In this document: one piece after another, positions 3 to 62,300 of the stretch
Layout: every line of letters begins with the position of its first letter
How positions within the stretch are numbered: the first letter of the stretch is position 1
NCBI GenBank assembly: GCA_022539475.1
Contig: VCMS01000196.1
Location: 39,373 to 103,372, forward strand
Source of the DNA: Gracilaria domingensis
Lineage: Eukaryota > Rhodophyta > Florideophyceae > Gracilariales > Gracilariaceae
Length of the DNA: 64,000 nt
Direction of reading: 5' to 3'
The notes under the pieces: model-generated
The model's database searches: none
The model's input: the letters and a program-made list of their open reading frames with translations, nothing else
Told to the model about the DNA's origin: nothing
Made by a program: the position numbers and the translations under genes

Positions 3-332
3 ACCCGTCCCCCGCCCCGAGAACCGGTTCAGAACCCGAACGAACTACTACCACGCTTGGGTTTTGCTAATTGTCACTCCCCGATGTCGGGAAAGAACAA
101 GGAAGCAGCCGAAGATAGCGTATACCCACAAGAATTCGTGGTAGATCGTATCGTGGAACACGAGGAAAGCCGCGAAGGGAAACTACTGTATAGAGTCCGT
201 TGGTACGGCTATCCCCCTGACGAGGACACTTGGGAGCCAATTGAACACCTCCCCAGGTCCAAGGTGATGTCGTATCATCGCCGTACTCGGACGCCATTGC
301 CTCCGACATTGGATAACGCGATGGTCGGGTAG
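3..332 (+). CDS. Ty3 pol polyprotein, C-terminal chromodomain (partial)
   Basis: Open from the left edge to a stop at 330-332; only the last ~109 codons are present. The final ~70 residues form a chromodomain: a FVVDRIVEH strand, then LLYRVRWYGYPPDEDTWEPIEHL with the aromatic and WEP positions typical of the fold, then a YHRR helix. The same block ends the pol proteins at 43271 and 62300, all finishing in a similar VG tail. In chromoviruses this module follows integrase and is thought to tether the integration complex to chromatin. Upstream sequence is P/E/N-rich linker. Intact as far as visible. Confidence 0.88.
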   Translation, partial: TRPPPREPVQNPNELLPRLGFANCHSPMSGKNKEAAEDSVYPQEFVVDRIVEHEESREGKLLYRVRWYGYPPDEDTWEPIEHLPRSKVMSYHRRTRTPLPPTLDNAMVG

Positions 333-723: not shown

Positions 724-1137
724 CTAACCTCCAGTGGAGGGAGCACCGCTTCCCGTGTTGGGATTTCGCGCGAAGTACTCGCTCGCCAGAGCCGCGAGCC
801 CCGCAACGGTGTTCACCCCCGGGGGGGTCGGAATGCCATGAGCCTGGAGGTCAGCACGAAGGGAAGCCACACTCCCAGCCCAATTGGCAGGCTGAGTAGT
901 GGGAGCGATCAAGGACCATCCCGCAGGGGCTTGAACGCCCTCTGTTGGGACCGCTGCCGCGTTAGGATCCGAGTTCGGAACTCTTGTCAGCTGTGCTGGC
1001 CCGGCTACGGTGGCAATCTCATCATCGTCCAACATTGGATCAGGTGCATCCGACGGAACGGCGTAATCCTCGGGGAACACGAACCCTACTGGGCGACCGA
1101 CCGGCATTTCGCGGGCCATAGCCGCCATTGCAGTCGC
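724..1137 (-). pseudogene. C-terminal part of Ty3-A antisense ORF beyond in-frame stop
   Basis: Same reading frame as the 547-aa ORF, directly after its TAA, open for a further ~137 codons. It continues the homology to the C-terminal part of the related antisense proteins: a basic GRPVGFV segment matching GHPRGFV at the homologous place, then an acidic stretch and an A/P-rich helical tail ending in a Gly/Ser-rich terminus. So this is one gene interrupted by a single stop codon, either a nonsense mutation or a readthrough position. The neighbouring frames show no disruption. Confidence 0.65.
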
Positions 1138-2781
1138 TTACTCCTCGGAGATGAACTGTCGTTCCCACGGGTCGTAGTACACCCAGACCCCGGAACGGGT
1201 GGAAATTCGCCCCGGTGATCGGTCACGGAAACGCTGTCGCCTGTCAGGCTGCCAAGCTACCGGAACTCGGTCCCAATCGACCCTATCGATGACATCCAAC
1301 AACTCTCCAACCTCTTCCTGGTTAGCCTCGGAACCCAAGGGGGTAACAAGATCAATCCTTCGAAGGAGCCACCTCAAATTTGGAGGGAGATACCACAAGC
1401 GGTAGTGATCATAGACATCCCACAGGAGGTGAACCGCGACGCGGGGAGCCCACTCGGCGAGTACCAACGACCAATAGCCCGAGTTGGGATTGTCTATCAA
1501 CCGCAAGCCGATATAGTAGATGCTCGGCGGGAGTTCAGCGAAACACCCCGCAGGGACCTCTACGCGACTCCAGCAGGATGGAAGGCCTACGTATCGGGAC
1601 GGTAAGGCATCGAAGCGCAAACGATCAACCTCCAAATTTGGATACGGAATCAGAAGTCCCCGACGGGAGCGCGCATTCCGCTCCAACCGGACCCTCCTCT
1701 CGAAATCATAGAGATCACGGTTGTGACGCCTACTCCGTGACAGGTATCGGAACTCTGCCCTCAGCAAGGGACGACTCCACAGGAGGATATCAGGATCCAC
1801 TTCACCAAAGTGATACCGATGCTCCGCTTCCCGAAACTCCGCCAACGCGTTGCCATATGAAACCTCCCCGTAGGTACGGTAGTGCGACACGTCGAAGTCT
1901 AATTCTGCCGGAATCGGATGATCATATTGCAACCTTCCAACCGTGGAATAAGCCAGACGAGCCATCTTCCCACGCGCTTGGTCAAGAGACTCTCCACGTT
2001 CACATCCGAGCAAGTGAGGTTCCACCGCAATGTGGGTTCGCCACTCGCGGGAGCGTACTGCATCTCGGGGGATCCCACCTGGGAGCATTCCGTTCACGGC
2101 GTAAGAATCGATGAGAGCCTCATCGGCAACCGCTGTCGGGTGGAACCACGGCGCGCGGGAGAAGATAAGGCCCTCGCGGCGTATATCCCGATTCACGAGG
2201 GACTCACGACTAATCCACCCACTGGGGTTCACCGTCAACGGGACAGCTTGTTCAGCATTCCAAGCAATGGCGTTAGTATCGAAAGCCTGCTGTGAAGGAG
2301 CAACTGGAGGAGCCGGAGGCATCGGAAGAGGAGCACTCGGATGGGGGTACGCCTCGTAGAAGCTGAAAGGAGCTACCGCTTGTGGGACCGGAGCTTGCGC
2401 CTGAGAAGGGAAGAACCCGAGATGGTTGTACCCCGCGTAGGGTTGATTGAACGGACCACCGTACGGATTCCCTTGAGGGAGAGGAGCTGACTGAAACCCA
2501 CCAAAGTATTGGGAGGGGCCTTGAGGAAGATGTCCTTGTAGCGACGCACTACCCGGGGGCACCTCAGACGCCGCTTGCGGAGCTGACGACGAGTTCCCCG
2601 GGAGCGGGTTGGTATGGAACGGGTTCGGATTCATTCCTGTCGAAGGAGAAGAAGGATCAGTAGGCACTGGTAGCGAACGCCGAGGTATCGGAGAAGAAGG
2701 AGGAGTTATATCCGAAGTCGGAGGCGAAAGCCGCTTGTGTGGAAGAACCAAGTGGTCGGTAGAACCCTGAGGGGACGTCAT
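1138..2781 (-). CDS. Antisense ORF protein of Ty3-A (547 aa)
   Basis: Lies antisense to pol, between pol and the 3' LTR. I do not recognise a known domain. The first ~190 residues are low-complexity Pro/Ser/Gly/Tyr-rich; from ~190 on the protein is globular and aligns by eye with the product of 40983-42782: shared blocks include DSYAV.G.LPGG, the MAR.GY segment, a YRT.GEV.YG segment, LRAEFR.L, and P.C..VEVP.GC..ELPP..YIG. A YYDPW motif comes just before the stop. The start at 2781 overlaps a TATA-like sequence, so the next in-frame Met (2634) may be the real start. The frame ends at a TAA (1138-1140) where the two homologues read on, so this copy may be truncated. Confidence 0.75.
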   Translation of the reverse strand: MTSPQGSTDHLVLPHKRLSPPTSDITPPSSPIPRRSLPVPTDPSSPSTGMNPNPFHTNPLPGNSSSAPQAASEVPPGSASLQGHLPQGPSQYFGGFQSAPLPQGNPYGGPFNQPYAGYNHLGFFPSQAQAPVPQAVAPFSFYEAYPHPSAPLPMPPAPPVAPSQQAFDTNAIAWNAEQAVPLTVNPSGWISRESLVNRDIRREGLIFSRAPWFHPTAVADEALIDSYAVNGMLPGGIPRDAVRSREWRTHIAVEPHLLGCERGESLDQARGKMARLAYSTVGRLQYDHPIPAELDFDVSHYRTYGEVSYGNALAEFREAEHRYHFGEVDPDILLWSRPLLRAEFRYLSRSRRHNRDLYDFERRVRLERNARSRRGLLIPYPNLEVDRLRFDALPSRYVGLPSCWSRVEVPAGCFAELPPSIYYIGLRLIDNPNSGYWSLVLAEWAPRVAVHLLWDVYDHYRLWYLPPNLRWLLRRIDLVTPLGSEANQEEVGELLDVIDRVDWDRVPVAWQPDRRQRFRDRSPGRISTRSGVWVYYDPWERQFISEE

Positions 2782-2840: not shown

Positions 2841-2856
2841 CCTAAGGAGGGGGAGA
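2841..2856 (+). promoter_or_regulatory. Polypurine tract of Ty3-A
   Basis: CCTAAGGAGGGGGAGA abuts the LTR start TGTGG. This is the expected primer site for plus-strand DNA synthesis. Near-identical tracts occur inside pol of the related element at 57753 and 60906. Confidence 0.85.
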
Positions 2857-4273
2857 TGTGGAGCAACAGCTTTCTGCTATCGGATGCATCACGGTTCTCA
2901 TAATGAGATGGTACCGATGGCCGGTGACGTGGCTAAGTTATGAAAGCTCCCTTTAATTTTGGGTATTTTTGGGATGGTTTGGTTGGACCCTTAATAGGTG
3001 GACCCTGCATGGGAAGTGCATAGTAGGTGTGATAGTAGGCCACGTGGTGGAGCTGGCTAGTTAGATATTTGTGCCACGCCCGTTGGAGAGCACCCTGCAC
3101 CCTGACAGTGGTTCGTCCACGTGTATGACCCTCGGGAGGTGTGCATCGTAGATACCGTAGTAGTAATAGTATATATGCTCGGGTGATCTCACCCTGGAGC
3201 CTCTAAGTAAATGGACAACTGAGTCGCGTCCTGTTGAGGATCGGGCTATAGTAGACAGCGGCCTACGTAGGTTTACCACTCCCCTCGGAGAGTAATCACG
3301 ATTGGTTTCGGCGCTACTACCCCTCAGGGTCACTTAGGAAGCTTGCATCTTGCCATCTCTGGAATCTTTGATATCTACCGTTTTATCGGTTCATTGTTGT
3401 TGTCATTGTATTTTGTTGTTTACTTTCGTGACTGTTGTTGTCACGCGTTCACCTGGTTCAGGTATTGCTTCCGCCCCAGTATTGGGTATATTTTTGGCAT
3501 GCCTTTGTGCGTCGCTCCGCTATCGGACCTGTTCCCGCCGGTTGGCACGGTCCGTAGATTCGCTCCGGTGGGTTGCACCGTGAGCTTTCCCACTTTGACA
3601 CGGTTCCCTTTTTCTCCATCTCTCCAGGTTCGGATCACACTTCACCTCTGGATCTACACCGTTCTTTGCATCTCACCTGTGTAGGTATATCCAGTCACCG
3701 TCTCCGGTCTTACACCCGGCTTGTCTCGCGACTCGAGCACGGACAGAGGGTTCTACCGCTGTTTCTATCCCATCCAGGGAGTAGGACTCGGACATCCTAA
3801 TGGAGATTCCCCATCGCGCCCAGCGCAGAGTTTTGCTCTACACCCTCGGGTTAATTCCGTCTTCGGACACCTTTCATTGTGGAGATACCTGCTTAACCAC
3901 AAGTGGTAGAACTACCAACTCTGTATAGAGATCTTTGCCGCGTGGGCTGAATACAGGTCTCCGTCATCCGCCGCCGGGTCTGTTGCCGCTTTCCGCACGC
4001 CTCGTGGGTGGTTTCCTTTGGTTTTTATCTCTTTTCCCCCTTTTTTGCTTAAGGTTTCCACTGCTCACTGGTACTGCCCACCACTGTGGTCTCCGTTTCC
4101 GGATCTTCACCTAGCCTGTTCCCCGTCAACCTCCGAGGTATATCCCGAGGCACGGGCAGTCTTACACCCGCCATTCTCCGTGCACGGAGGGCTCATTCTC
4201 TGGCTCTACGTCCCCTAGGGAGCAAGGACTCGAACTTCTTGAGTGTCTGTCCCGTCCCCGGGTTTGCACTACA
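2857..4273 (+). repeat. 3' LTR of Ty3-A (1417 bp)
   Basis: Starts TGTGGAGC right after the polypurine tract and ends GGGTTTGCACTACA. The end resembles GGGTTTTGCACCACA and GGGTTTTGCACAACA, the 3' ends of the other two LTRs in the window. It is longer than the 856-bp LTR of the complete element. Short frames inside it are not supported as genes. Confidence 0.8.
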
Positions 4274-40929: not shown

Positions 40930-40944
40930 TCTCCCCCTTCTCAG
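40930..40944 (-). promoter_or_regulatory. Ty3-B polypurine tract
   Basis: Minus strand CTGAGAAGGGGGAGA directly abuts the 3' LTR start TGTAG. The same 15-mer recurs exactly at 42908-42922, and near copies occur in pol at 44604 and 47809. Confidence 0.9.
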
Positions 40945-40982: not shown

Positions 40983-42782
40983 ATGGAGGTATATAAGGAA
41001 GTCTCCCAAGACGGGTCTGCCGAGAACTGTTCGGAGCCACCAACACCTCCGGTGTCAGTAGCGAACCTCGTCATCTCGAGCCCCTCCGCGATGTCCAACG
41101 CACCGAACGGCCCTCCGTCCTCGACGGCACGCATGCAAGTATCGAACCCGCCGTTCCGGTCTGTTCCTCTCCCGCAGTCGGCGGCTGCCTCCCAGCCGGG
41201 TTCTTCCGGACAAGATCACGCTCCAGCCCAGGCTGGTCCCGCGCCCGTGTGGGATTGGTTCAACGCCGAGATGCCAGCTACGCTGGGTGGATGGCCTACC
41301 GCAGGCGCGTTACGCATCCGGGATCCGCACCGGCATAGTTTCCTTTTTGCCCAGGCTCCCTGGTTTGACGCCGAAGCCGTTCGGGATACGGAGCTCGTCG
41401 ACTCGTACGCTGTCGACGGTCAACTCCCTGGTGGGCTTCCTGCTGACGTTACCCGTTCATGGGACTGGATCGCCCGCGTTGCGGTTATACCGAGCTGCCT
41501 GTTTGTAGGTCGAAACGAGACGAGACAATTCGCTCGCAATGAGATGGCCCGCATTGGGTACGCGCGACACTTCCGAGCTCCGAACGAACATCCGGTGCCG
41601 GCACAGTACCAGTACGATGTGGCACGTTACCGAACTTTCGGCGAGGTCGGCTACGGCGACCATCTAGCCAACGCGTTGGACGAAATTGACCGATATTCGG
41701 ATACCGTTCAGCCGCAGCAGGAGTTGATCCTGTGGGCGCGGCCGATCCTTCGCGCCGAGTTCCGGTTCCTTCGCCGTCCTGGACGGTCTCAATTTCATGA
41801 AGGCCTCCGCTTCGAGAGGAAATGGCGTTCCCGCTTCGGGGTACTGGTGCCGTACCAGTGCACGGAGGTGGAACGCATTGCGCGTCATTCCCATACTGGG
41901 CGATACCTGCCGCTGCCGTCATTCTGGCCTGCGGTCGAAGTCCCACGAGGGTGTCACGTAGAGCTACCGCCCTGCCTAACTTACATAGGCTCGTACTTCA
42001 TGAATGATCCGCCTCGCGGCCTGTGGAGCATCCTGGCAACAGAATGGACCGTCCGCGTTGCGGCTTTCCTCCTCATCGAGGCATATGACTCATACCGAGT
42101 TTGGTTCATCCCGGAACTCATCCGGCAAGCGATCCGAGCGTTGGATCTCTCCGAAGTGCTCGGCTCGGTCCGCAATGCGCGCGAAGCCACCGCGTTGGTG
42201 GACGTCATTGACCAGATTGACTGGAATGAGGTGCCTGCTAGTCAGGTTTCCGACGGGGTCCGTCGGCAGTCGGACCGTTCCCCCGGACGGAACGTCAACG
42301 CCGGCGACTTCGTATACTTTGACCCATGGATTTGGGAGGTAATTGGTCCCGCTGAGGCGGCTGGTCGCCGCCGAGAGGAGCGATATATCCCGGAAGGGCA
42401 CCCGCGTGGGTTCGTATACGTCGACGATGACGGTGATGACCCTGCAGAGGGAGGAAGTCCCATGGATGAGGGGAGCCCAGTGGGGGTTGCCTCGGAGCCC
42501 GACGCTACGGGAGATGACGACGAAGTCGTGATCGTTGACCCGCCCGCTGTAGCGGCTCCCGCTCCGACCGGCCCGTGGGCTCAGGATGTAGCATCCGCCG
42601 TGGGCGGCAGTTCTTCTCTCACTCCGCGAGCGGCGGTCATTCGCGACTTCCTTCGAGGCGTGGGAGTGGCCGTTCCCGATACGGTGACCGACGAGTCGGA
42701 GTTGCAGGCAATAGCGGCACAGCGCTTCTCCGAGGCTCCCGGTAGTGGGGGCACCCCAGGTGCTGGACCGTCCGGCGCGTAA
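40983..42782 (+). CDS. Antisense ORF protein of Ty3-B (599 aa)
   Basis: Full-length intact version of the antisense protein seen in all three Ty3 copies. The first ~80 residues are Pro/Ser-rich; residues ~95-480 are globular with conserved blocks DSYAVDGQLPGGLP, MARIGYARH, YRTFGEVGYGDHL, LRAEFRFLRR, FGVLVPYQ, LPSFWPAVEVPRGCHVELPPCLTYIG and an IDWNEVP..Q segment; then VYFDPW, GHPRGFV, an acidic region and an A/P/S-rich tail. It has no signal peptide, membrane segment, zinc-binding or catalytic motif that I recognise, and no similarity to gag, env or RNase H. The same-frame Met at 41091 is an alternative start. Strong conservation between diverged copies implies selection on the protein. Confidence 0.85.
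   Translation: MEVYKEVSQDGSAENCSEPPTPPVSVANLVISSPSAMSNAPNGPPSSTARMQVSNPPFRSVPLPQSAAASQPGSSGQDHAPAQAGPAPVWDWFNAEMPATLGGWPTAGALRIRDPHRHSFLFAQAPWFDAEAVRDTELVDSYAVDGQLPGGLPADVTRSWDWIARVAVIPSCLFVGRNETRQFARNEMARIGYARHFRAPNEHPVPAQYQYDVARYRTFGEVGYGDHLANALDEIDRYSDTVQPQQELILWARPILRAEFRFLRRPGRSQFHEGLRFERKWRSRFGVLVPYQCTEVERIARHSHTGRYLPLPSFWPAVEVPRGCHVELPPCLTYIGSYFMNDPPRGLWSILATEWTVRVAAFLLIEAYDSYRVWFIPELIRQAIRALDLSEVLGSVRNAREATALVDVIDQIDWNEVPASQVSDGVRRQSDRSPGRNVNAGDFVYFDPWIWEVIGPAEAAGRRREERYIPEGHPRGFVYVDDDGDDPAEGGSPMDEGSPVGVASEPDATGDDDEVVIVDPPAVAAPAPTGPWAQDVASAVGGSSSLTPRAAVIRDFLRGVGVAVPDTVTDESELQAIAAQRFSEAPGSGGTPGAGPSGA
40990..40997 (+). promoter_or_regulatory. TATA-like box for Ty3-B antisense ORF
   Basis: TATATAAG on the plus strand, 61 bases inside the LTR edge, corresponding to TATAAATA in Ty3-A. 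It lies just after the first possible start codon (40983); if used, translation would begin at a later Met (41091). Confidence 0.4.
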
Positions 42783-43270: not shown

Positions 43271-46200
43271 TCAACCCACTTGGGCCTTGTCCAGCGTAGC
43301 CGGTATCGGTGTCCGTGTGCGACGGTGGTACTGCAAGACCTTCGAGCGAGGCAAGTGCTCAATGGGCTCGTGCGTATCCTCTGAAGAGGCGTAGCCGTAC
43401 CAACGGACTCGATACAGTAGTTCCCCGTCAGGGGCGTAGCCGTGACTTATCAGACGGTCAATGACATACTCCTCATCGAGGACCTTCCGCGCAGGATGCG
43501 GCTTTGTCGATGTATCCTCTCTCGAGGTGTCGTTGTTACCTCTCCCGTCGTGGGCTTCATTGGTTACTTTCGGCTTCCGTCCTGACGGCAAGACATCCTG
43601 TACGCCAGGCGAGAGCCATTTTGACCATGGTGTTTCCATGTCATTCCGGCTTCCAGAGTTCTGGCTTTCCTTCCCGTATTGTCGGGCTGTTACCGAGCTT
43701 CGGTGTTCTCGAATAGCGAGCTTCCGGCGTTCCGGCAAGATCTCCCGAAGTGAGGGTGAACGGTCCGCAATGCGGTGTGCCAGCGAGTGGTGCCGTGGCA
43801 CGTGCCGAGGCGACGCCTTGCCAAGCATTGCTGGCGGTGGGGCCTGCGCCGTTGCACGGCTGTGCGTTGCCGATTCAAATTCGGAATTTCCGTTTCCGGC
43901 GGCCGCAAGCCTTACAGCGGGCACGTGCCCGGCTCGTGTGTTGTCACCCTCCACTGGAGGCAGATCGCCGGCGAAGCCAGACACTTGGCGCAGCGTGCGC
44001 GCGTGTGCAGCGTTGGGCTGCTGCCCACCTACTGTGGCATGTCGACCTGCTGTTGCGGCGGTTGCCTCCGTGTTTTCAACGGCTTCATCACTCGATGCCT
44101 CAATAAAATCTCCCGAAATCGGGTCTGCCGTAACAACACGGTCTTTCTGGACAGGCTTCTTTTCCGGTCTTCCGGCTTCTTTTGACGCGAGTGCGCTGCC
44201 GCTGCCGGGCTCCGACTGCGGCGGGCATGTACTTTCCGCATTCGACGTGGCTGCTGCGGTGGTTACCACCCTCTTTTCCGGCGTACCGGTCTCACGCTGC
44301 ACAGCTGGGGCAGGCTCTTGTCCTTCCGTCTGTGACGGCCGTACAGTGCTATCCGTGGGCGAAGCGGCGACTTCTGCAGCAGCTACATCCTGGTGTTCTT
44401 CCGGTTCTCCGGCTTCGTGCTCCACCGAAGTGGTGCGTTCCTCTTTAGGCTTCCGCGATGACTGCGCGTTTCTCGCTTCTTTCCGAATCTGCGGCTGTAC
44501 GTCGCGCGTCCGCGTGCTTTCACCACGACTTGCGTGCGGCCCGGAGGCCTGCAAAGGCACTTCCGTCGACGACGGCGACAACGAGATCGAGCGACTTACC
44601 TCCTCCTCCCCCTCCTCAGTTGGAGCGTCGGGGGTGGTGGTGAGTATCCCCTGAGGGGCCATTATCCGCGTGTGGACATGTGCGGCGTTCGAGACTGGCG
44701 GGTTAGCTTCCGGCTTTGCCGGCAAATCAGCAAGTCCGCGGCTAGGATGCGGCAGGACTGACAACGAAGCGCGCTCTCCCGCTGTCGCGGCTGGGTCCAC
44801 AGTAGGCGTAGCGCTGTCCGGCGTTTCCGGTTGCTTTTCCTGACGAACAGGCTGTGGCGCAGGCGTTACGCGATCGCGCGAAAAACGCTCGTGTTCACCC
44901 TCAATATCGAGGACAACCGTTGTATCGGTGATAGAAATAACCCTGTAGGGGCCGTCCGCGATAGGAGAGAGCTTATGCCTCTTCTCCTTTTCCGGATTAT
45001 AGTATTCCTTCCGTAGGAAGGCGTAGTTACCTTCCCTGATCTGAGGGGCATCCCTGCGCATTCGTGCGTCGAAATTCCGCTTGTACGCGGCTTGTGCCTT
45101 ATCGATGTTTTGCCTAACTGTAGGAATGATGTTCTTAAGCCAGGCCTTCCAGGCGTCCCTGTGTAGACGAGGCGAGGGGAACTTATCCAAAGTTGGCTGT
45201 GGCTCGATAGCCACCGAAGGTGGAACGCGTGATAGCACAAGCTCGAACGGCGAGATCTGAGTAGTGCGATGAACCTGCGTATTGTAGGCATATGTCACCG
45301 CATCGGTGTATTGATCCCACTCCGACGGATGTTCGGCAACGAATGTCCGTAATGCATTGAGCATTGTGCGGTTAAAACGTTCAACCTGCCCATTACTCTG
45401 GGGGTGGTATGTTGTCGTAAACCAGTTTTGGATCCGCAAGATGCGGCAAACGTCCTGAAAGAACTTAGCCGTAAACTGCGGTCCATTGTCCGATAACAGG
45501 TCAATCGGCGGTCCGTAGACAAAAACCCAGTGTGTAACGAAAGCTTGGGCGACCGCACTGGCGGTAACCTTCGTCAAAGGCACAGTCCGTACCAGTTTAG
45601 AAAAACGGTCGGTGATCACAAGTAGAAACCGGTTTCCCCGGCGAGTGCGGATAAACTCGCCGAGCAAGTCAATTGCCACGAATTCAAGTGGAGCCCTAGC
45701 AGGGAAGAGTACCAACTTCTTGGAGTACTTCCGCAGTTTGACGCGGTTCTTCGCGCAGTCAGAACATCCACGAACAGTGGCATACGCGTCGAAAGCCATT
45801 GCTGGCCAGTAAAAGTCCTTCCGTAAGGTGTAGTACAACTTCCTGCCACCAGGGTGGGCTGACAACTTCGCGTAGTGCGACAAATGCAGTACTCGTGACT
45901 GAAGTGAGTGCGGAACCACAATCTGTGGCCTGTTTCCGACGGTTCGGATTAGAAATCCTTGGTCGTTCTCGACGAAAGGCAACTGTGCTCCACCGTTTAG
46001 GCGACTACGAATCTCCGTACAAAAACGGTCGGTGTGCTGCTCCCGGATGAGTTCCTCCGGCTTGATCGGTACGAAAGAGCCCGGTTCGGGTTGCGTGTCA
46101 GACACGGCTAAAACAGCATCGTAGATGTCCCATCCTTCCGATTCTTCATCGGCATCGCTCGAGCCGTCTTCCACGAGGAAGCACGGTATCTCCAGATCAT

Positions 46201-48802
46201 CGACTGGCGCAGCTTCAGCCGCTGTTTCCAAGCGGGACAGTGCATCAGCCTGAGTGTTCAGGAGTCCTTTCTTGTAACGGATTTCGAAGTCGAATTCCGA
46301 CAAGCGAAGTCTCCACCGCATCAAGCGGCCAGATGGCTCTGCTATAGAGAGTAGCCAGCGTAATGCCGAATGATCGGTATGGACAATGAAGCGGGTCCCC
46401 ATAAGATAGGGCCGCAGTGTCTGTAACGCCCAGACAACTGCCAAGCACTCCTTCTCGGATACCGAGTAATTCCTCTCGTGAACGTTGAGGCTCCTTGACC
46501 AATACCCAATTGGCAATCGCTCGCCATCATTGGTGGTCTGGAATAGGGCACAGCCGACTTGGTAGTCGCTCGCATCCGTATCTACTGCATATGGCAGACC
46601 AGCCCTAGGCAGGGATAAAACAGGTGGCGATGTCACCGCGTCCACGAGCGACGAGAAAGCCGCGACCTTGCGGTCATCAAATTCTTCCAGGTCGACTGGC
46701 TGGCCTTTGCGAAGAAGCTCGTTCAGAGGTGCAGCGATATCCGCGAAGTTCGGAATGAAGCGGCGATACACATTGCACAAGCCGAGAAAAGATCGGAGTT
46801 CCGTCTGCGTCCTCGGATGCCTAGCCTCTTTGAGGGATTTCACGCGTACTTCGTCAATCGAAAGCCGTCCCGGACGGATAACATGGCCGAGATACCTGAC
46901 GGTTTCGGTAAAGAACTCACACTTCTTGAGCTTGAGCGTAATGCCTGCATCGCGTAGGACTCGCATCACATCCCGTACGTGGGTCAAGTGCTCATCCAGG
47001 TTGCTGGAGTAGACAATGATGTCATCCAGGTATACCAGGCAAGTCTTCCACTTAAAGCGGGCTAGCAAAATATCCACAGCTCGTTGAAAAGTGGCTGGCG
47101 CGTTCGTTAACCCAAAGGGCATCCGATTGAATCGGTACAATCCTTCATGACAAACGAAGGCTGTCTTGTCACGATCCTCAGCCCTCACGGGTACTTGCCA
47201 ATAGCCCCAATTCGCGTCTAGGGTTGTGAACACTTTCGCGTCGCCCAATGAATCGATGCATTCATCCATTCGTGGGATAGGATACACATCCTTGACCGTA
47301 GCCGCGTTTAGCTTGCGGTAATCGATGCAAAATCGCCAAGACCCATCAGCTTTGGGCGCGAGCACCACCGGCGATGCCCAAGGTGACTGAGCCGGCTCGA
47401 TAACTCCAGCGCGGAGCATCTTCTCAACTTGAGCTTTCTCCTCCTGCCGAGCTGTCGGTCCTGCCCTGTAAGGGTGCTGTGAAATGGGCCGAGTATTCGG
47501 TAGCAAATCAATCCGATGTTCGGTAATACCAATCTTACCCAGAGTGCCATCCCACATGGGCGTGAACTCCTCAAGCATGTGCCGCAATTTATCGCGGTGA
47601 GTCTCTGGGACATGTTCAAGATCCAGAGACTCCAGTTCCTGTACTGCCTTATCCTTCGTGTCAGCAGCACTCAGGTCCGTATCATTACTGTCCGACGAGG
47701 TCGGCATTGCCTCCTTCGACAGGCTGCGGTTATTTGCATCCGACGAAGTCGGCGTAGCATCTTCCGACGAACTGTTCGGTCCAGTCGTTTCGGAATTGTT
47801 CCGTTCCGCCTCCCCCTCCTCAGCTTCGAGGATTCCGAGAACCTCGGCAATAGAAACCTGAGTAGGCACTATAGCCGCAGGATGCGGAAGCAACGAACCA
47901 ATAACTTGGCTCCTAACCAACCGTTGAGAAAAACGGCTGAAGTTCGCAACCAGCACCTGAAAAGGCTTCTCGGGTTCGACGAAAACAATCCCATTAGCGA
48001 GGGCAAGCTGATGCTTCTCCTGTAACGCAGGCAACGGTTGTACCGTTTGTAAGCCACATTGTGGGGAGGTCACAGTAACCCAGACCTGTGATTCAGGCGG
48101 GATGGAAATGGGCCGAGCTACTCGGAGCTTTGTAGACTTCCGTTCATCGGCTGTAGGCTTCTGCGCAGCAGGCAATGGCACTTGCTTCTTCAGAGCCCTT
48201 CTAAGGGGTCGCCGAACGATCGGTACAGTAGTCCCATCTTCCATCTCGATGGTTCGCTTCCGCGGTCGAATTGCATCGACGAAGCGGTCACAGAAGTCGC
48301 AGCCGAGGATAACCGGCGCAGCGAGTTGCTTGCAAACCAAGAAATCGAGCTTCGCCACGTAGCGGCCAAGCCTGACGAGCAGGTCTATTACTCCCACAGT
48401 CGAAAGTGGCCGATTGTTCGCATCCGCTATATCAATCTGCGGCGCCGCACGAACGCGAGACCGCAAGTGCGGCGGAATCATAGACTCAACCAAAAAGTTT
48501 GGCCCAGCTCCTGTATCGAGCACGGACAACTGCCGAACCATGTACTGGTCGGAAACACCTAGGTCGGCGTAAACTTTGTAGTTACGTTTCGCCATGACCA
48601 GGACTCTATCCGGGAACCGGCTGTTCTTAGACCGTATCCACGGGCGACGCAAGACACCAAGGTGCTCAGAGTCCACGTCTGTAGTGGCCAGTTTCCTCGA
48701 AAGGATTGTGACCGGGGAGCGAGGCTTCGCAGCCTCAGGCGCACTAAACCCCGTCGCTGGGGGCGCCTCTCCATTGCTGGAGGCTCCCTTGCTCAGTTTT
48801 TC
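43271..48802 (-). CDS. pol: Ty3-B pol: protease, RT, RNase H, integrase, chromodomain
   Basis: Read in the -1 frame from the slip site at the gag stop (48796-48802); the first usual start-like codon (GTG) is at 48676, numbering from there. Protease VLDTGAGPNF (~53-60). RT with LTNAPATFQRAV and YLDDIIVYS (~549). RNase H with DTDASDYQVG, SEKECLAVVWAL and HTDHSALRWLL. Integrase: HLSHYAKLSAH...CSDCA zinc finger, then Asp in AIDLLGEF (~1000), Asp in LSDNGPQF (~1059), Glu in NGQVERFNR (~1095), and a GPYRV motif (~1242). A ~490-residue disordered linker separates this from the C-terminal chromodomain (EYVIDRLISHG..LLYRVRWYGY). No stops; all catalytic residues present. Confidence 0.93.
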   Translation of the reverse strand, partial: EKLSKGASSNGEAPPATGFSAPEAAKPRSPVTILSRKLATTDVDSEHLGVLRRPWIRSKNSRFPDRVLVMAKRNYKVYADLGVSDQYMVRQLSVLDTGAGPNFLVESMIPPHLRSRVRAAPQIDIADANNRPLSTVGVIDLLVRLGRYVAKLDFLVCKQLAAPVILGCDFCDRFVDAIRPRKRTIEMEDGTTVPIVRRPLRRALKKQVPLPAAQKPTADERKSTKLRVARPISIPPESQVWVTVTSPQCGLQTVQPLPALQEKHQLALANGIVFVEPEKPFQVLVANFSRFSQRLVRSQVIGSLLPHPAAIVPTQVSIAEVLGILEAEEGEAERNNSETTGPNSSSEDATPTSSDANNRSLSKEAMPTSSDSNDTDLSAADTKDKAVQELESLDLEHVPETHRDKLRHMLEEFTPMWDGTLGKIGITEHRIDLLPNTRPISQHPYRAGPTARQEEKAQVEKMLRAGVIEPAQSPWASPVVLAPKADGSWRFCIDYRKLNAATVKDVYPIPRMDECIDSLGDAKVFTTLDANWGYWQVPVRAEDRDKTAFVCHEGLYRFNRMPFGLTNAPATFQRAVDILLARFKWKTCLVYLDDIIVYSSNLDEHLTHVRDVMRVLRDAGITLKLKKCEFFTETVRYLGHVIRPGRLSIDEVRVKSLKEARHPRTQTELRSFLGLCNVYRRFIPNFADIAAPLNELLRKGQPVDLEEFDDRKVAAFSSLVDAVTSPPVLSLPRAGLPYAVDTDASDYQVGCALFQTTNDGERLPIGYWSRSLNVHERNYSVSEKECLAVVWALQTLRPYLMGTRFIVHTDHSALRWLLSIAEPSGRLMRWRLRLSEFDFEIRYKKGLLNTQADALSRLETAAEAAPVDDLEIPCFLVEDGSSDADEESEGWDIYDAVLAVSDTQPEPGSFVPIKPEELIREQHTDRFCTEIRSRLNGGAQLPFVENDQGFLIRTVGNRPQIVVPHSLQSRVLHLSHYAKLSAHPGGRKLYYTLRKDFYWPAMAFDAYATVRGCSDCAKNRVKLRKYSKKLVLFPARAPLEFVAIDLLGEFIRTRRGNRFLLVITDRFSKLVRTVPLTKVTASAVAQAFVTHWVFVYGPPIDLLSDNGPQFTAKFFQDVCRILRIQNWFTTTYHPQSNGQVERFNRTMLNALRTFVAEHPSEWDQYTDAVTYAYNTQVHRTTQISPFELVLSRVPPSVAIEPQPTLDKFPSPRLHRDAWKAWLKNIIPTVRQNIDKAQAAYKRNFDARMRRDAPQIREGNYAFLRKEYYNPEKEKRHKLSPIADGPYRVISITDTTVVLDIEGEHERFSRDRVTPAPQPVRQEKQPETPDSATPTVDPAATAGERASLSVLPHPSRGLADLPAKPEANPPVSNAAHVHTRIMAPQGILTTTPDAPTEEGEEEVSRSISLSPSSTEVPLQASGPHASRGESTRTRDVQPQIRKEARNAQSSRKPKEERTTSVEHEAGEPEEHQDVAAAEVAASPTDSTVRPSQTEGQEPAPAVQRETGTPEKRVVTTAAATSNAESTCPPQSEPGSGSALASKEAGRPEKKPVQKDRVVTADPISGDFIEASSDEAVENTEATAATAGRHATVGGQQPNAAHARTLRQVSGFAGDLPPVEGDNTRAGHVPAVRLAAAGNGNSEFESATHSRATAQAPPPAMLGKASPRHVPRHHSLAHRIADRSPSLREILPERRKLAIREHRSSVTARQYGKESQNSGSRNDMETPWSKWLSPGVQDVLPSGRKPKVTNEAHDGRGNNDTSREDTSTKPHPARKVLDEEYVIDRLISHGYAPDGELLYRVRWYGYASSEDTHEPIEHLPRSKVLQYHRRTRTPIPATLDKAQVG
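44604..44619 (-). promoter_or_regulatory. PPT-like tract inside pol (linker region)
   Basis: Minus strand CTGAGGAGGGGGAGGA, coding EEGEEE in the linker after integrase. The equivalent place in Ty3-C has CCTAAGGAGGGGGAGG (60906). Confidence 0.55.
47809..47823 (-). promoter_or_regulatory. PPT-like tract inside pol (protease-RT junction)
   Basis: Minus strand CTGAGGAGGGGGAGG between protease and RT. The equivalent place in Ty3-C has CCTAAGGAGGGGGAGG (57753). Confidence 0.55.
48761..48802 (-). promoter_or_regulatory. -1 frameshift signal at Ty3-B gag stop
   Basis: Minus strand: slippery G AAA AAC directly before the gag TGA, 7-base spacer, then a stem GGG(A)GCCTCC / GG(AG)AGGC(G)CCC with a 6-base loop (48788-48761). 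Slipping back one base gives GAA AAA CTG, the frame of pol. Confidence 0.7.
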
Positions 48803-50966: not shown

Positions 50967-51822
50967 TGTGGTGCAAAACCCTCGACGGGAAGCAACAAAC
51001 CGCGTCGCGGACGAGCACCTCAGGGTGTTCAGGCCCTGCTCCCTGTGAAGGGCAGTCGAGCGGCAGAACCCTCCGATAGGGCCAACACGAGCCGGGTGTA
51101 AATCCGGGTGGCCCCGATCTGGGCGTGCAGTCGGAGGTAAAAGGGGTAGAATCGGCGTAGGTATCCGGATGGTTCCGGCGAGCCACAGCGAGTGGGGGTA
51201 TCCAGCCCAACGGTATGGGACGACAAAAGATCGACAAACGAGCCGCACTGCGGAGCACTGACTCGCGATAAGCGGGAAAACTCCCGAGACAAATAAAACA
51301 AACCTACAATGTAGGGCAGAGTAGCGAAAGCCGTAAGACGGAAATGAAAACAATAAAATAGATAAGAAAAGTGCCGTGACGACGGATTAGTACTCTTCAG
51401 AGACGGAGGTTGGTTGATCAGCCCGGAATTGCGGCGGTATTCCCCAGGATGGGGCTGGTGACCGTGCGCAAGCGGCAAGAAGATCAGAGCCAAAGGCCTC
51501 GTTGAGGTTTACTTCCCGTACAGTGGCGGCAAGTGCCGCCACTTATATACGGCACTTGAAAATATCAATTAAAATATCTAACTATCCGGCGCTGCCGGCC
51601 AATACACTACAGGTGTGCAACCGTGGCAGGCTTGCCACGGCGCACCCGCTATCGGGTCAACTTGGCACACGTGTGCAGAAATACTACCCTTCCTAGGCAT
51701 AACCCAAAATAGGGCACTACCCCAGTAGCCTCTCATAACCTGAGGTGTCGAAGCCGATGACGGATCAACAAACTATGAAAAGCACCTCGGTGCATCCCCA
51801 CAAAAGGGCGTTTTGCTCTACA
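50967..51822 (-). repeat. Ty3-B 5' LTR
   Basis: 856 bases, five differences by eye from the 3' LTR. Preceded in transcription order by the GCCGA duplication. Confidence 0.95.
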
Positions 51823-54266: not shown

Positions 54267-54685
54267 GTCGCGTTGATCCAGCAAGTTGGTTTTCTGATCA
54301 ATTTCCGGTTTGCCGGTTCGTATCTGGTCGTGGAGATACACTACACAGTTTCTACTGGAAGGCTTTGCCGACAGACGTCGTGTTGGTACTGCTTTCCTCA
54401 TTTTGGGTTGTTGTTTGGACACGGTTTACTACCGGTGGCACTACCTATTTCCGTAGTGTGTGATTCCCGTCGGTACGGTTGTTGTCACCCCGTTTGGGTT
54501 GTCTACCGTTCCCAGCAATCTGGTCGAGTCAGCCCTAATTCCGTATACGGCTGTTCCCGTTGGTACGGTTGGTTCGTCCGATTTGTCGGTTATCGTCACT
54601 CGTGTGAGGACGCTACACTCATTCGAGGTTAATTTGTTGGTTGCTTTCCTGTTCCCAGTTTTCTGGTTGTTTCTCGTCGTGGACG

Positions 54686-56770
54686 ATGGTGTCGGGCAAG
54701 CGCTCGAGCCCTACGAAGTCTCGCTCCGTTGGCTCTGGCTTGCCCCCACGTCTGCGGTCTGTTCCTGAACCCCTACAGGGTGATGGAAAGAAACGCGGAA
54801 ACCGGAAACAGCCGGACAAGTCGTCTGACGCCCCAGTGGCTGGGCCCTCATCTGCTCCTTTGGAGGGTCTTATACCCGCTGTCGCGGCGAAGGATGCGCT
54901 CGTAAACGAGTTGGAGACTCAAGTTCGTGTGCTTGAGGCTCAGACTGCTGTCATGAGGAGTTCTCATGAAGCACTCGTTTCCGAGGTCGACACACTTCGT
55001 TTGAAGGTTGACGCAGCCCTCAACGGAGGTGTATCAGATGATCTACGTATTTTACGGAAGGATGTTAATGCCCTCTTGGAGGTTCTTCAAGGATATCCCG
55101 GTTTCACCGAGGAGGTTAACACGAAGTTCATTCGGATCCTTGGCCGTCTTGAGACGTTAGAGGCCACCATCCGTGAGGATGACGGCCCTGCTGCCGCCTC
55201 TGCGGGAGTGTCTCGTGGTACACGTGACCGGAAGTCCGGGAAGAGTCGCTCTAAGAAGAGGAATGTCGACGAGTATGACTCGGATTCGTCACAGTCTTCT
55301 GGTATTTCAAACCGCTCGGCGGGTTCCTTATCATCGAGCTCGTCAAGTGACGGTGAACGTCGCGCTCGTTCTACGCGTTCGCGGAGTTCTACGTCCACCT
55401 ATGGTGTTGTTGGTACCCGGAAACGGGGGCGAAAGCACTCAGGTTTGAGGGAACTGGAGCCGACGAATCCCTTGTTCAAAAGGTTGTTATCTTACCGGTA
55501 TTACCGTTTGGAAGATTCAAGTCTGAACCGGACGCCCCGTGGCACGGGTAAGGTGAAGGACTGCATCAAACGCATGTCCTTAACCTTTCGCAACCAGTTG
55601 TTCACTGGGGAGGATCCCATTCTGGTGCTTGACTTTCTTTCACGCTTTGTAGCGGAAGCTGACATCCTCGGCATGAGTGAGGGGCAAGCTTATGTTGCCT
55701 TACCGTATTTTCTACGTGGACTCGCTGAAGATCAGTATAACTCTGTAAGAGGTTCATCTCGCGCCTCTGAAGGAGGGGTCACCTGCTGGCCCGAAGCAGT
55801 GCAGTACTTGTTGCGCTCTTATGCGACAAATACCTCTATCGAGGAAGCAATCACCGCGTTGCGGGAGACGAAACAACGCCCGAAGGAGTCGGAAACCGAG
55901 TACTCGGTACGCCTGAATAAGGCATTCCACCGTTGTGGCAATGTTTACTCCTCAAACGAGCGCTGTACGCTGTTTATCAACGGATTGAATCCGGCTATTC
56001 GCACTCTGGTTGCCCAGCGACGGGAAGACCGGAAGAAGACTACCTATCTGGAGTTAGTGCAGTACGCGAAGGCGGAGGGAGACGCCTTGCGCGCACGCAC
56101 CGGATACCGGGTTTCAACCAAGGCGTTGCACCTCGAAGGAGGGTCGTCATCGGCTTCACTGCTACCGCAGGACTTTTCTGGCCACGATGTGGATAACTTA
56201 CATCTCGCACAGGTGGACCTGGATTCAATTCCGACTACGGAGTTGCCTTCTACTTCAGAAGCCTCGTCGAAGACGGAAGATGCGCTGCTTTACGCAGACC
56301 GTCCACGCGTTCGCGGTCCTCAAGTACCCTATTCAGGGAGTCGTTACCAGCGACCTGGTTGGGTAGACCCGCGAACGGTGAAGTTCCAAGACCCACGGAG
56401 TTCCGGAAGACCACCCCTGATCTGTTTCACGTGTTACAACCACGGTCATGCAGCTCCGAACTGCAACCTCTCGATGAGGGAAATGCCCACGGTTGTGGCG
56501 AATTTTGAAGCGCTGACCCCCGCCGAACAGGCGTCAGTGCCGGTAACCGCATATCTGCGTGCGAAGGCTGAGTACCCCCGTAGGGTGTCTGCTGCAGAAT
56601 TGGCTGCGTTACTGCACTCTGGTTCGACCCAGGTCAATGTTTCACCGGCTCAAGCCGTGGCGGCAACCGCTGTTGCGGGTAGTTCTGTCGCTGTTCCACA
56701 GGAATCTGTGAAGATGCCTGCTGCACAGGACGCCGTTCCCGTTAGAACGGATGGAACTCAGTTAAACTGA
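54686..56770 (+). CDS. gag: Ty3-C gag (694 aa)
   Basis: The first ATG of the open frame is at 54686 (MVSGKRSSP); the frame is open further upstream but without ATG. Basic N-terminus, coiled coil (~70-140, NELETQVRVLEAQ and LKVDAALNGG), S-rich acidic stretch, capsid-like domain (~245-450: ILVLDFLSRFVAEADILGMSEGQAY, then VTCWPEAVQYLLRSYATNTS), zinc knuckle CFTCYNHGHAAPNC (~580-593) of CX2CX4HX4C type, and an A/V/P tail. Closely similar to the Ty3-B gag through the capsid region. It ends at TGA 56768-56770 within the frameshift signal. Confidence 0.92.
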   Translation: MVSGKRSSPTKSRSVGSGLPPRLRSVPEPLQGDGKKRGNRKQPDKSSDAPVAGPSSAPLEGLIPAVAAKDALVNELETQVRVLEAQTAVMRSSHEALVSEVDTLRLKVDAALNGGVSDDLRILRKDVNALLEVLQGYPGFTEEVNTKFIRILGRLETLEATIREDDGPAAASAGVSRGTRDRKSGKSRSKKRNVDEYDSDSSQSSGISNRSAGSLSSSSSSDGERRARSTRSRSSTSTYGVVGTRKRGRKHSGLRELEPTNPLFKRLLSYRYYRLEDSSLNRTPRGTGKVKDCIKRMSLTFRNQLFTGEDPILVLDFLSRFVAEADILGMSEGQAYVALPYFLRGLAEDQYNSVRGSSRASEGGVTCWPEAVQYLLRSYATNTSIEEAITALRETKQRPKESETEYSVRLNKAFHRCGNVYSSNERCTLFINGLNPAIRTLVAQRREDRKKTTYLELVQYAKAEGDALRARTGYRVSTKALHLEGGSSSASLLPQDFSGHDVDNLHLAQVDLDSIPTTELPSTSEASSKTEDALLYADRPRVRGPQVPYSGSRYQRPGWVDPRTVKFQDPRSSGRPPLICFTCYNHGHAAPNCNLSMREMPTVVANFEALTPAEQASVPVTAYLRAKAEYPRRVSAAELAALLHSGSTQVNVSPAQAVAATAVAGSSVAVPQESVKMPAAQDAVPVRTDGTQLN

Positions 56771-57752
56771 GTACGGGAGTCTCCAATGGAGAGGCGCCCG
56801 AGTCGAGGTCTACGGCGCCCGAGGCGTCACCGCCTCGCTCCCAGGTCAAAATCCTTTCGAGGAAACAGACCGTCTTAGACGTGGACTCTACCACCATCGG
56901 TGTGTTACGTCGCCCGTGGATACGGTTCAGGAACAACCGGATCCCGGATCGAGTCATGGTGCTGGCCAAGCGAAACTACAAGATATTTGCTGACCTTGGC
57001 CTATCCACCCAGTATATGGTGCGTCATCTCTCTGTCTTAGATACAGGTGCTGGCCCCAACTTCATTGTTGAGTCGTTACTACCGCCGGAAGTCCGTTGTC
57101 GAATCCGCTCTGGACCCGTCATGGACGTGGCAGATGCTAACAATAACCCGTTACAAACGGCTGGAATGGTTTCACTGATTGTCAGGATTGGTAACTGCAT
57201 CGAGCAGGTAGAACTCATCGTCTGCAAGACGCTCGCTGCCCCTGTCATTCTAGGGTGTGACTTCTGCGACAGATATGTCGAAGCCATACGACCGCGTGCG
57301 CGTGAAGTGGAAATGGAAGATGGTTCGGTTGTACCGATTGTTCGTCGCTCATTACGCCGAGCGTCAGCTAAGCTGGTACCACTACCCGCTCCTCTACAGG
57401 ATTCCTCACCTCCGAAGGAGTCGCCGAAGCTCCGCGTAGCGCGTGCAATTTCTATTCCGCCAGAATCCCAGGTTTGGGTTGATGTTACTGCCGCACCGCG
57501 TGGTTTGCGGGTTGTTCAACCATTGAACTCGTTATACGAGAAGTATCAGGTCGCGTTGGCGAACGGAGTTGTTCAAATCAACAGCGAAAACCCCTTTCGG
57601 GTTATGTTGGCCAACTTTGGCAAGAAGCCCCAGTATCTGGTGAAGAACCAAGTAATTGGTACTGTCTTACCGCACCCTACGGCGCTTATCCCTACAAAGG
57701 TGACTGCCGCCGAGATGCTCGGGCTTGCTGAAGAACGCACTGGGTGCTTCAC
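56746..57752 (+). CDS. pol: Ty3-C pol, protease part
   Basis: Frame -1 relative to gag. It contains LKLRR-free linker then VLRRPWIRFRNNRIPDRVMVLAKRN, and the aspartic protease LDTGAGPNFIVES with ADANNNPLQTAG and APVILGCDFCDRYVEAIRP, matching Ty3-B nearly residue by residue. The frame loses homology near 57735-57752 and continues only to 57885; RT resumes in the next frame, so a single-base indel separates protease from RT in this copy. Confidence 0.85.
56761..56799 (+). promoter_or_regulatory. -1 frameshift signal at Ty3-C gag stop
   Basis: Slippery G TTA AAC (56761-56767) followed at once by the gag TGA, 7-base spacer, then a hairpin with stems GGG/CCC and TCTCC/GGAGA around AAT (56775-56799). 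The -1 frame is open from 56746, after a TAG, through protease. GTTAAAC is a known functional slip site in other systems. Confidence 0.7.
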
Positions 57753-57768
57753 CCTAAGGAGGGGGAGG
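57753..57768 (+). promoter_or_regulatory. PPT-like tract in Ty3-C pol (protease-RT junction)
   Basis: CCTAAGGAGGGGGAGG, same place as the tract at 47809 in Ty3-B and same sequence (through 15 bases) as the LTR-adjacent PPT of Ty3-A. Confidence 0.55.
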
Positions 57769-60700
57769 GAGAATCGTCGCGCTCGTCTGCGTCGGACCCG
57801 TCCCAGACGGTTGAACACACGAATGACTCGGAAGCTAGGACCGTTCCTACGAGTTATGACAAGATTGACCCTATCAAGGAGTTAGAAGAATTGAATCTCG
57901 GTCATGTACCGGTTTCACACCGTGAGAAGTTGCGCAACATGTTGCGAGAGTTTACACCAATGTGGGATGGTTCCCTCGGAGAGGTTTCAACTACGGAACA
58001 CCGGATTGACCTCCTGCCGGAGACCAAGCCGATTGCTCAGCACCCTTACAGGGCAGGCCCGAAAGCACGGGAAGAGGAAGAGTTTCAGATCAACAAAATG
58101 CTCCGCGCTGGCGTGATAGAACCGGCTCAGTCGCCGTGGGCATCTCCAGTTGTACTGGCTCCGAAACCCGATGGGTCCTGGCGCTTTTGTATCGACTATC
58201 GTCGCTTGAACGATGTCACCGTCAAAGACGTGTACCCCATACCTCGTATGGACGAGTATATCGACTCGCTTGGCGATGCTACTGTGTTCTCCACTTTGGA
58301 TGCAAACTGGGGTTACTGGCAAGTACCAGTTAGACCGGAAGACCGTGACAAGACCGCGTTTACCTGTCATTCAGGACTATACCGCTTTAAGCGTATGCCG
58401 TTCGGGCTAACGAACGCCCCCGCTACGTTTCAGCGTGCTCTGGACATTTTGTTAGCTCGCTTCAAATGGCGGAGTTGCTTGGTATACCTCGATGACATCA
58501 TCGTGTTTTCCAACAGTTTGGACGATCACCTCGAACATGTTCGAGAGATAATGACCGCTTTGCGGGATGCTGGAATTACTCTCAAATTGAGGAAGTGTGA
58601 GTTTTTCACTGACTCAGTGAAGTATCTGGGCCATGTCATACGTCCAGGACGGTTACTGATCGAGGAAGCTCGCGTGAAGTCCCTCAAAGAGGCGAAGCAC
58701 CCCACTACACAGACAGAGCTACGCTCCTTTCTGGGGCTATGCAACGTTTATAGACGGTTCATTTCTCGCTTCGCAAAGATCGCGGGACCGCTCAACGAAC
58801 TCCTGAAGAAGGGACAACCGCCCAAATTGGGACCACTTACCCCCACGCAAGTGGAGGCCTTCAACTCTCTTAAAGAGGCTGTTACCACGGCACCCGTGTT
58901 AGCGTTACCAAAGAACGGGTTGCCGTACACCGTGGATACGGATTCGAGCGATTACCAAATTGGCTGCGCTCTCTTTCAGACTACACCCGAAGGGGAACGC
59001 AAACCAATTGGCTATTGGTCTCGTACACTCAACGTGCACGAGCGCAATTACTCGGTATCCGAGAAGGAGTGTCTCGCCATGGTATGGGCTTTGCAGACTC
59101 TACGACCATATCTTATGGGTGTGCACTTTACCGTCAATACGGATCATTCCGCCTTGCGTTGGTTAATGTCAGTCACGGAGCCTTCCGGACGCTTAATGCG
59201 TTGGCGTCTTCGGCTTGCCGAGTTTGACTACGAGGTCACCTATAAGAAGGGTTGTTTAAACGCGCAAGCGGATGCTCTTTCACGTCTAGGAACGGAAGGT
59301 GAAGCCTTACCCGTCGATGACGAGGATGAAGATATCCCCTGTTTCCTCATGGAGGAGGGTTATGAAGACTACGACATCGTGTCGGACGATATCTGTGATG
59401 ATTTGCTCGTCGCAGACCGTGAAGACCCGGAATCCGGTACATTCGTCCCCATTACTCCAGAAGAGCTGGTGCGGGAACAGCAATCTGACCCGTTCTGTAC
59501 GAGGATACGCTCCCAAATTAATGGTGGTGCTAACATCCCGTTCGGGGTCAACACACAAGGTTACCTCGTCAGAGTGGTTCGTTCTGCCCCACAGATTGTG
59601 GTTCCTCACTCCTTACAAACAAGGGTATTGCATCTCTCGCATCACTCGCGGATGGCTTCCCATCCGGGTGCTAAGCGGTTATACACGACACTGCGTCGGG
59701 ATTTCTACTGGCCCGCGTTAGCGTTGGACTGCTACACCACCGTGAAGGCGTGTACACATTGTGCTCGCGAGCGAGTTAAACAGCGTCGCCATGCGAAGAA
59801 ACTAACTCTTTTCCCCGCAAGGGCGCCGTTGGAGTTTATTGCCATCGATATACTCGGTGAGTTCTTGCGTACTTCCCGAGGAAATCGGTTCTTACTCGTT
59901 ATTACGGATAGATTCAGTAAGCTAGTCCGGACAGTTCCGTTGAAGTCGATTACAGCACGCAGTGTTGCGGAGGCATTCGTTCGCCATTGGGTTATGGTCT
60001 ACGGTCCCCCGGTCAATCTCCTCTCAGATAATGGTCCGCAGTTTACTGCACGTTTCTTCCAGGATGTCTGTCGGATACTCGACGTGAAGAATCTCTTCAC
60101 GACGACGTATCATCCCCAATGCAATGGGCAAGTCGAACGGTTTAACCGGACAATGCTCTCCGCGTTGCGGGCTTATACAGTTGAACACCCGAAAACTTGG
60201 GATCTCTACACGGATACCGTGACGTATGCGTATAATACGCAAGTTCACAGAGTAACTGGTTTATCGCCCTTTGAGCTCGTGCTCTCACGGACACCACCGC
60301 CAGTTGCGGTTGAACCATCAGCAAAGCTGGATACGTCACCGTCAATACGGGATCACTACTTGCAATGGAAGCAGTGGTTATCCGCAATGGTACCTGTCGC
60401 CAGGTCGTCAATGGCGAAAGCACAACACGCTTACAAGCGGAACTTTGATGCCCGGGTACGGAGACCACTACCGCCACTGAAAGTGGGAAACCTCGCCTTT
60501 GTCAGGAAGGAGTACTACAACCCTGAAAAGGAGCGGCGCCACAAGCTTTCACCCATCGCTGATGGTCCGTACCGCGTTGTCAGCGTGAACAAGGACACTG
60601 TCGTACTGGAAGTTGGTGACGCTCATGAGCGTTTCTCCCGCGATCGCGTGGTAAGAGGTCCAACCGTTCACACGGAAGTACTTTCGGACACACAGCAGGA

Positions 60701-60905
60701 AGCTGGACAGACAGAGAACCGAGGAACCTCGTCGCAGAACACTACACCCACTGTGGGGCTCCGTCACCCAACACGGGGTCTCGCAGATGTACCGATTATA
60801 TCGTCGCAAGCCGAGGTATCGGAACATACACCGCTGGTGAAATCGCGTTTCACAGCGTCTGTTACACCGTCAACTGACGTGATGACTGCTCCCCATAACG
60901 CTCCA

Positions 60906-60921
60906 CCTAAGGAGGGGGAGG
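60906..60921 (+). promoter_or_regulatory. PPT-like tract in Ty3-C pol (linker)
   Basis: CCTAAGGAGGGGGAGG coding PKEGEG in the linker; counterpart of 44604 in Ty3-B. Confidence 0.55.
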
Positions 60922-62300
60922 GGAATTCACGCGTTGTCGCGGAGAGTGAGTCACCGGTGTCGCTACCGTCGCAGCACCGTGATTCACGGGAAAGTAATGA
61001 AGCAGAGGCAGAGTCGCCTCAGGACACCGTCGAAGACGTAGTTGCTACGGACACCACTGTCAGTGGGAAGGATCACCCGCTGTCGCGTGTTGAAGTCGCG
61101 AAGGACGCGCCGCAGTCGGCCGCTGTCGCGCAGAACTCTGCGGAGGATACACAACCTTCCACGAAGGATCGCGACCTTCAGGAAGGACACCGCACGCAAC
61201 GAACGGACTCAAGGTTGTCCCAGGATACTGGTATTGCTCACCCATCTGGGGAATTGTCACAGGAACACGCGCCCATCGTCGCACGGACGCAGGACGCGGA
61301 GCATGCTCTCGTTCGCGAAGTTTCCACGGCAAGGCCGGAAGTTGATCAAGAACACCCGACTTCTCGGCAGAGCAAGGCTACAGCGAAGCTGGATACTGTA
61401 TCACGGAGTATTCCGGACGCGCAGTCGCCGCATTCCGCCGCTGACGACCGCCGCAAACCGCCTTCGCAGGCGCGCTGTAGGGTAGTCACGGCAGATCCCG
61501 GTATCGTTGACACTGCAGAGCAGAAAGAAGAGAAGACGCTCGCTGAAGCGAAGATCAAGCACCCCGGTTCGGGTAATGGTAGTGCACCGTTGCACCCAGC
61601 CGTGGGGAAGTCGCAAGTCGCACGTCATGACGTTTCGCTAAGTCATGACGGCGCACCGCTCGTTGGAGATACGGATTACAGCCCTGATTTAGGGAAAACG
61701 CACACTGCAGCTGCAGGAGCGCTTGCGCACCACAAATCTTGGGGTGCGCAGCGCGCGCCACACAATGGGCCAATCACAGCTCGTGGCAGCGCTGCCACCA
61801 CGAACCGTCGCGCGCCGTCACGTGAACCGGCACGTGCCGTGGTGAACAATCCGCCTCCGCGTTCGCCTTCACCGTCAGGACGGGAACTACCGCATGAACT
61901 AGCCGTTCGCGGACCCGCCGAAGCGGCGAAGCTGCTTGAGAAGACCCGGATTCCGGAAGCGACCACTCAGCGGAGGACACACTTACCGCCGAAGGCGTCA
62001 GGAGAAACTCACAGCACCGCTGGTGACTATGTAACGGCACCGCCGCGGCACGCTGACGACCCTTCGCAGGAAGAGCTCGAGCGGGGAGTTTACTCGAAAG
62101 AGTTCGTTGTCGACCACATAGTGGGGCACAGTTGGAACCCGAAGGGGTATGTTCAGTACCAGGTACGCTGGTATGGCTATCCGCCGTCGCGGGACTCGGA
62201 CGAACCCGTGGAGCACCTACCCCGATCGAAGATCGTGCAGTACCACCGTCGTACTAACACGGCGTTGCCGGCTAATCTACATCAAGCGATGGTCGGTTAA

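What the first reader, a model, noticed from the sequence alone, without database searches (positions are those of the whole stretch)
724..2781. Conserved antisense ORF in all three Ty3 chromoviruses of the window
Ty3-A (724-2781 minus), Ty3-B (40983-42782 plus) and Ty3-C (62793-63960 minus) each carry, antisense to pol and between pol and the 3' LTR, a homologous ORF of roughly 600-680 codons with shared blocks such as DSYAV.G.LPGG, YRT.GEV.YG and VEVP.GC..ELPP. Antisense ORFs at this place are known from some plant Tat-lineage elements, not as a rule from chromodomain elements. I recognise no domain, so this may be an undescribed retroelement accessory protein.
Basis: partly seen in the sequence, partly recalled or inferred. 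Interest (0 to 1): 0.88.

Follow-up and report, generated by a model that had tools for sequence, protein, structure and literature searches.

The report
Reverse-strand accessory gene in seaweed retrotransposons
Several kinds of Ty3-type jumping elements in a red seaweed genome carry, on the opposite strand next to their right-hand end, an extra protein gene that natural selection has kept, whose predicted core matched nothing in our structure search and whose job is unknown.

The parts
40983..42782 (+). aORF of element B, intact, 599 aa; disordered N-term (1-101), globular core (about 102-480), disordered acidic linker, C-terminal helix pair (548-583)
724..2781 (-). aORF of element A; open for 547 codons (2781-1141), stop at 1138-1140, then 137 further codons
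63252..63968 (-). matched pieces of the aORF of element C, frameshifted, cut off by the contig end
40074..40929 (-). 3' LTR of element B (the element reads on the minus strand)
50967..51822 (-). 5' LTR of element B; GCCGA at both outer edges of the element
40930..40942 (-). polypurine tract next to the 3' LTR of element B
43271..48676 (-). pol of element B: RT, RNase H, integrase, chromodomain, 1801 aa
48793..50802 (-). gag of element B, 669 aa; a CCHC knuckle below cut-off
2857..3842 (+). 3' LTR of element A; CCCTC duplication
2844..2856 (+). polypurine tract next to the 3' LTR of element A
90..329 (+). remaining chromodomain end of pol of element A
54641..56770 (+). gag of element C, 709 aa, 52% identical to gag of B
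56881..62300 (+). pol of element C, in two overlapping ORFs (56881-57885 and 57744-62300)

Best explanation
The ORF is a genuine, selected accessory gene of a clade of red-algal Ty3 chromodomain retrotransposons, probably present before the element families diverged. SHOWN: conserved place (between pol and 3' LTR, opposite strand), protein-level purifying selection between subfamilies, a confident predicted core without a detected PDB relative. INFERRED: it is transcribed from an antisense promoter in the 3' LTR, since its ATG lies 53 bp (B) or 75 bp (A) from the LTR and little room is left for a promoter outside it. The protein then acts in trans as a regulatory factor for the element; the C-terminal helix pair, weakly like a SAP domain (recalled as a nucleic-acid-binding helix-loop-helix), suggests contact with DNA or RNA. 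Estimates: selected accessory protein 0.95; LTR-driven antisense expression 0.6; nucleic-acid-binding regulatory role 0.35. The number below is for the statement as a whole.
Against: No RNA or protein evidence was available. The SAP match is weak, and Pfam gives no SAP hit. No promoter was shown; a TATATA word at -332 (B) and -394 (A) inside the LTR is weak. Close copies often show higher dN/dS (0.38-0.92 in several pairs), as expected of dead copies but also of weak constraint. In ten A-family copies the aORF ratio (0.43) exceeds that of the pol end (0.23). The pooled B value (0.087) is biased because those 20 loci were ranked by protein similarity. For 75 of 150 RT hits no aORF was found in truncated lists. 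The aORF tree is poorly supported apart from, weakly, B+C.
Confidence: 0.5

Rival explanations
1. The element captured a host gene, inserted in reverse, which now merely hitch-hikes.
For: Not related to gag by profile comparison (probability 0.2%); the origin is unexplained.
Against: Present in five divergent elements of one genome, multi-copy, and constrained across subfamilies. No hit was shown to be a host gene, but most neighbourhoods were not read.
Confidence: 0.1
2. The antisense transcript matters, not the protein: it pairs with the gag-pol RNA and feeds silencing or self-limitation.
For: The convergent layout could give overlapping 3' ends; PMC7264820 (parts 1-2 of 3 seen) raises dsRNA for such ORFs.
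Against: Constraint is on amino acids, with third positions free.
Confidence: 0.08
3. Structural or movement protein: an Env-like or particle-associated factor that happens to be encoded antisense.
For: Large globular core with a disordered, proline-rich N-terminus; it lies where env lies in retroviruses.
Against: No strong transmembrane segment: best 19-residue hydropathy 1.1-1.9, and 2.15 in P0010; opposite strand to gag-pol; no similarity to gag.
Confidence: 0.2
4. Anti-silencing or anti-defence protein that acts on host chromatin or RNA silencing so that new copies are expressed.
For: Fast evolution relative to pol (aORF 37-52% against pol 70-78% identity between five elements) is what an arms race would give; the deleted element A still carries an aORF.
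Against: No host target and no known suppressor fold; fast evolution has other causes; element A is one deleted copy and its aORF has a stop.
Confidence: 0.2

Closest known systems
Retand / Tat-lineage antisense aORF with TRP28 domain (PF04195), flowering plants (PMC11963269 abstract and passages; PMC7264820)
   Same: Ty3/gypsy element, antisense ORF between pol and 3' LTR, kept in most members, function unknown.
   Different: TRP28 not matched in any of 19 members; pol here has a chromodomain, Retand is described as a non-chromovirus lineage; red alga, not flowering plant.
Maize Grande gene23 (as described in PMC7264820)
   Same: Antisense gene between pol and 3' LTR.
   Different: gene23 is reported nuclear and with its own promoter; no such data here, and no sequence comparison was made.
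Boty of Botrytis cinerea (listed in PMC7264820)
   Same: Non-plant LTR element with an antisense ORF in the same place.
   Different: Sequence not compared; whether Boty is a chromodomain element was not checked.
HTLV antisense genes (HTLV antisense promoter in the 3' LTR, PMC7264820; APH-2, PMC11963269 passage; HBZ recalled)
   Same: Antisense gene at the 3' LTR side; a working analogy only.
   Different: Retrovirus of people; no homology tested or claimed.

Membership tests
Chromodomain Ty3 retrotransposon (the host element) | RT, RNase H, integrase and a C-terminal chromodomain in pol | tested here: met
   B and C pol, PF00385 29.3 and 27.7 bits against a cut-off of 25.1
Chromodomain Ty3 retrotransposon (the host element) | Paired LTRs, 5-bp target duplication, polypurine tract | tested here: met
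   for B and A; C is cut off by the contig end
Chromodomain Ty3 retrotransposon (the host element) | tRNA primer-binding site | tested here: inconclusive
   TGGTCTCCCGA follows the 5' LTR in A and B; no tRNA was matched to it
Retand antisense aORF | Antisense ORF between pol and 3' LTR | tested here: met
Retand antisense aORF | TRP28 domain PF04195 | tested here: not met
   not among the families matched at E up to 1 by any of 19 members
Retand antisense aORF | Non-chromovirus lineage | tested here: not met
   chromodomain present
Env-like protein | Same orientation as gag-pol | tested here: not met
Env-like protein | Transmembrane segment | tested here: inconclusive
   hydropathy only, maxima 1.1-1.9, 2.15 in P0010
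SAP domain (C-terminal helix pair) | SAP helix-loop-helix fold | tested here: inconclusive
Any solved fold (core domain) | PDB match to the core | tested here: inconclusive

The most novel reading that the evidence does not exclude
A new protein fold, encoded antisense and kept across red-algal chromodomain retrotransposons, acts as an LTR-driven regulator or anti-silencing factor: a layout like that of HTLV antisense genes, reached independently in algal retroelements.
Probability: 0.3. Interest if true: 0.82.

Novelty: new variant of a known kind. Interest (0 to 1): 0.64.

Why it matters
Antisense ORFs between pol and the 3' LTR are described mainly from plant elements, and the review seen here (PMC7264820) calls their function unknown. 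A protein without their TRP28 domain, in the same place, in chromodomain elements of a red alga, suggests that the arrangement arose more than once and has a use. Many copies without internal stops (53 of 73 and 51 of 71 scored) and a confident model make it testable.

Tried and rejected

Literature: open-access searches for antisense ORFs in chromoviruses and for Gracilaria or red-algal LTR elements listed no description of this gene (titles and abstract starts only). Subscription journals are mostly not held. PMC7264820: parts 1-2 of 3 seen. PMC11963269: abstract, outline and passages. All other papers: listings only.

Full report
WHAT WAS CHECKED. The window is C196:39373-103372 of a 77.9 Mb assembly, and its right end is the contig end. 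The three species-named relatives of the protein come from Gracilariopsis chorda and Agarophyton chilense, so the host is inferred to be a red alga of the Gracilariaceae; the species is not established. Element B is complete: LTRs 40074-40929 and 50967-51822, GCCGA on both sides, gag, a 1801-aa pol with RT, RNase H, integrase and chromodomain, and on the other strand a 599-codon ORF beginning 53 bp from the 3' LTR. The LTR limits add 12 shared bases that one search's rule cut off.

ELEMENTS A AND C. Element A is an internally deleted copy bounded by 98.3% identical LTRs and a CCCTC duplication. It keeps the chromodomain end of pol, a 214-codon ORF where gag should start (no tblastn match to the gags of B or C) and the aORF, which has one stop. 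Of 29 other A-type loci, 24 match A from the same base of L021 onwards, which marks A's deletion edge. One A-family relative on C122 has gag and pol (L054) and the chromodomain end and aORF (L022). Element C has gag and pol, but its aORF is in frameshifted pieces and runs to the contig end. A further element, Z, just left of the window (L051), also has pol, a chromodomain end and a facing aORF in pieces.

HOW WIDESPREAD. Searches of the same genome scored 73 places with B's protein (53 without internal stop), 80 with A's, 83 with P0004, 71 with the L055 protein (51 without stop) and 78 with P0005. These lists overlap and are lower bounds, ranked by similarity. Setting 262 aORF rows against 150 RT hits gave 75 RT hits whose nearest downstream aORF is on the opposite strand at 4.0-6.5 kb and none on the same strand. 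For 75 none was found, which cannot be told apart from list truncation; 4 RT hits had any aORF within 9 kb upstream.

SELECTION. Nei-Gojobori ratios between subfamilies are 0.13-0.20 where dS is not saturated; more distant pairs give 0.14-0.24 with dS above 1.6, which is not reliable. Close pairs range from 0.06 to 0.92. The right frame has 0-1 stop-bearing codons in the five pairs tested, the other five frames 9-34. The pooled ratio for L001-L020 (0.087) is biased by how the loci were chosen. In ten A-family copies the aORF ratio is 0.43 against 0.23 for the last 70 codons of pol; between two A subfamilies the raw pN/pS ratios are 0.195 for the aORF and 0.285 for the pol end. So constraint is clear between subfamilies and weaker or mixed among recent copies.

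CO-DESCENT. Over RT to integrase, five elements (A family, B, C, the L055 type and Z) are 70-78% identical; their aORFs are 37-52%. Both trees join B with C (99 and 65 support); the rest is poorly supported. The aORF therefore evolves faster than pol but is compatible with descent along with it.

MECHANISM. The start codon lies 53 bp (B) and 75 bp (A) from the 3' LTR, a gap that includes the polypurine tract. The promoter is therefore most likely in the LTR, by inference. No consistent membrane segment is seen, against an envelope role. A regulatory, nucleic-acid-binding role is favoured by the C-terminal helix pair and by analogy with other antisense ORFs discussed in PMC7264820; an anti-silencing role is a serious rival. 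Neither is shown.

NOVELTY. The arrangement is known from plant Retand, Grande and RIRE2 and from fungal Boty (PMC7264820; PMC11963269). The protein family, its predicted core and its occurrence in chromodomain elements of a red alga were not found in the searches listed under Tried and rejected. I rate it a new variant of a known kind.

Noticed in passing
window 44605-44617, 47809-47821 (B, minus), 57756-57768, 60909-60921 (C, plus), 2844-2856 (A); L051 162 and 3348; L055 6802 and 9936; L054 766 and 3947: The polypurine tract beside A's 3' LTR (CCTAAGGAGGGGGAGA) has near-identical internal copies at two like spots in pol of B, C, Z, L055 and the A family (L054), before RT and after integrase, coding x-K/E-E-G-E in otherwise variable linkers; 5 matches in the window, one of them the 3' tract of A, against 0.02 expected. 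Candidate central polypurine tracts.
   Followed up: partly
window 43074-43226: Five CCGC-N5-GCGG palindromes in 153 bp between pol and the aORF of B, four or five of them also in L001-L020; 14 in the window against 1.5 expected.
   Followed up: partly
window 42907-42920: A further purine tract (minus strand) between the aORF and pol of B, nearly the same as B's 3' tract.
   Followed up: no
G000:C144:60656, 72246, 83836: Three RT hits with the same score at exact 11,590-bp spacing: a tandem array of elements or an assembly artefact.
   Followed up: no
window 43461-44654 (+): A 397-codon ORF antisense inside pol of B; not tested.
   Followed up: no
L055:817-2202 (-): A 461-aa ORF beside the element that looks like a DDE transposase (recalled impression, not searched).
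   Followed up: no
window 43271-48676 (-): About 600 residues separate the integrase matches (to 1134) from the chromodomain (1737-1785) in pol of B.
   Followed up: no
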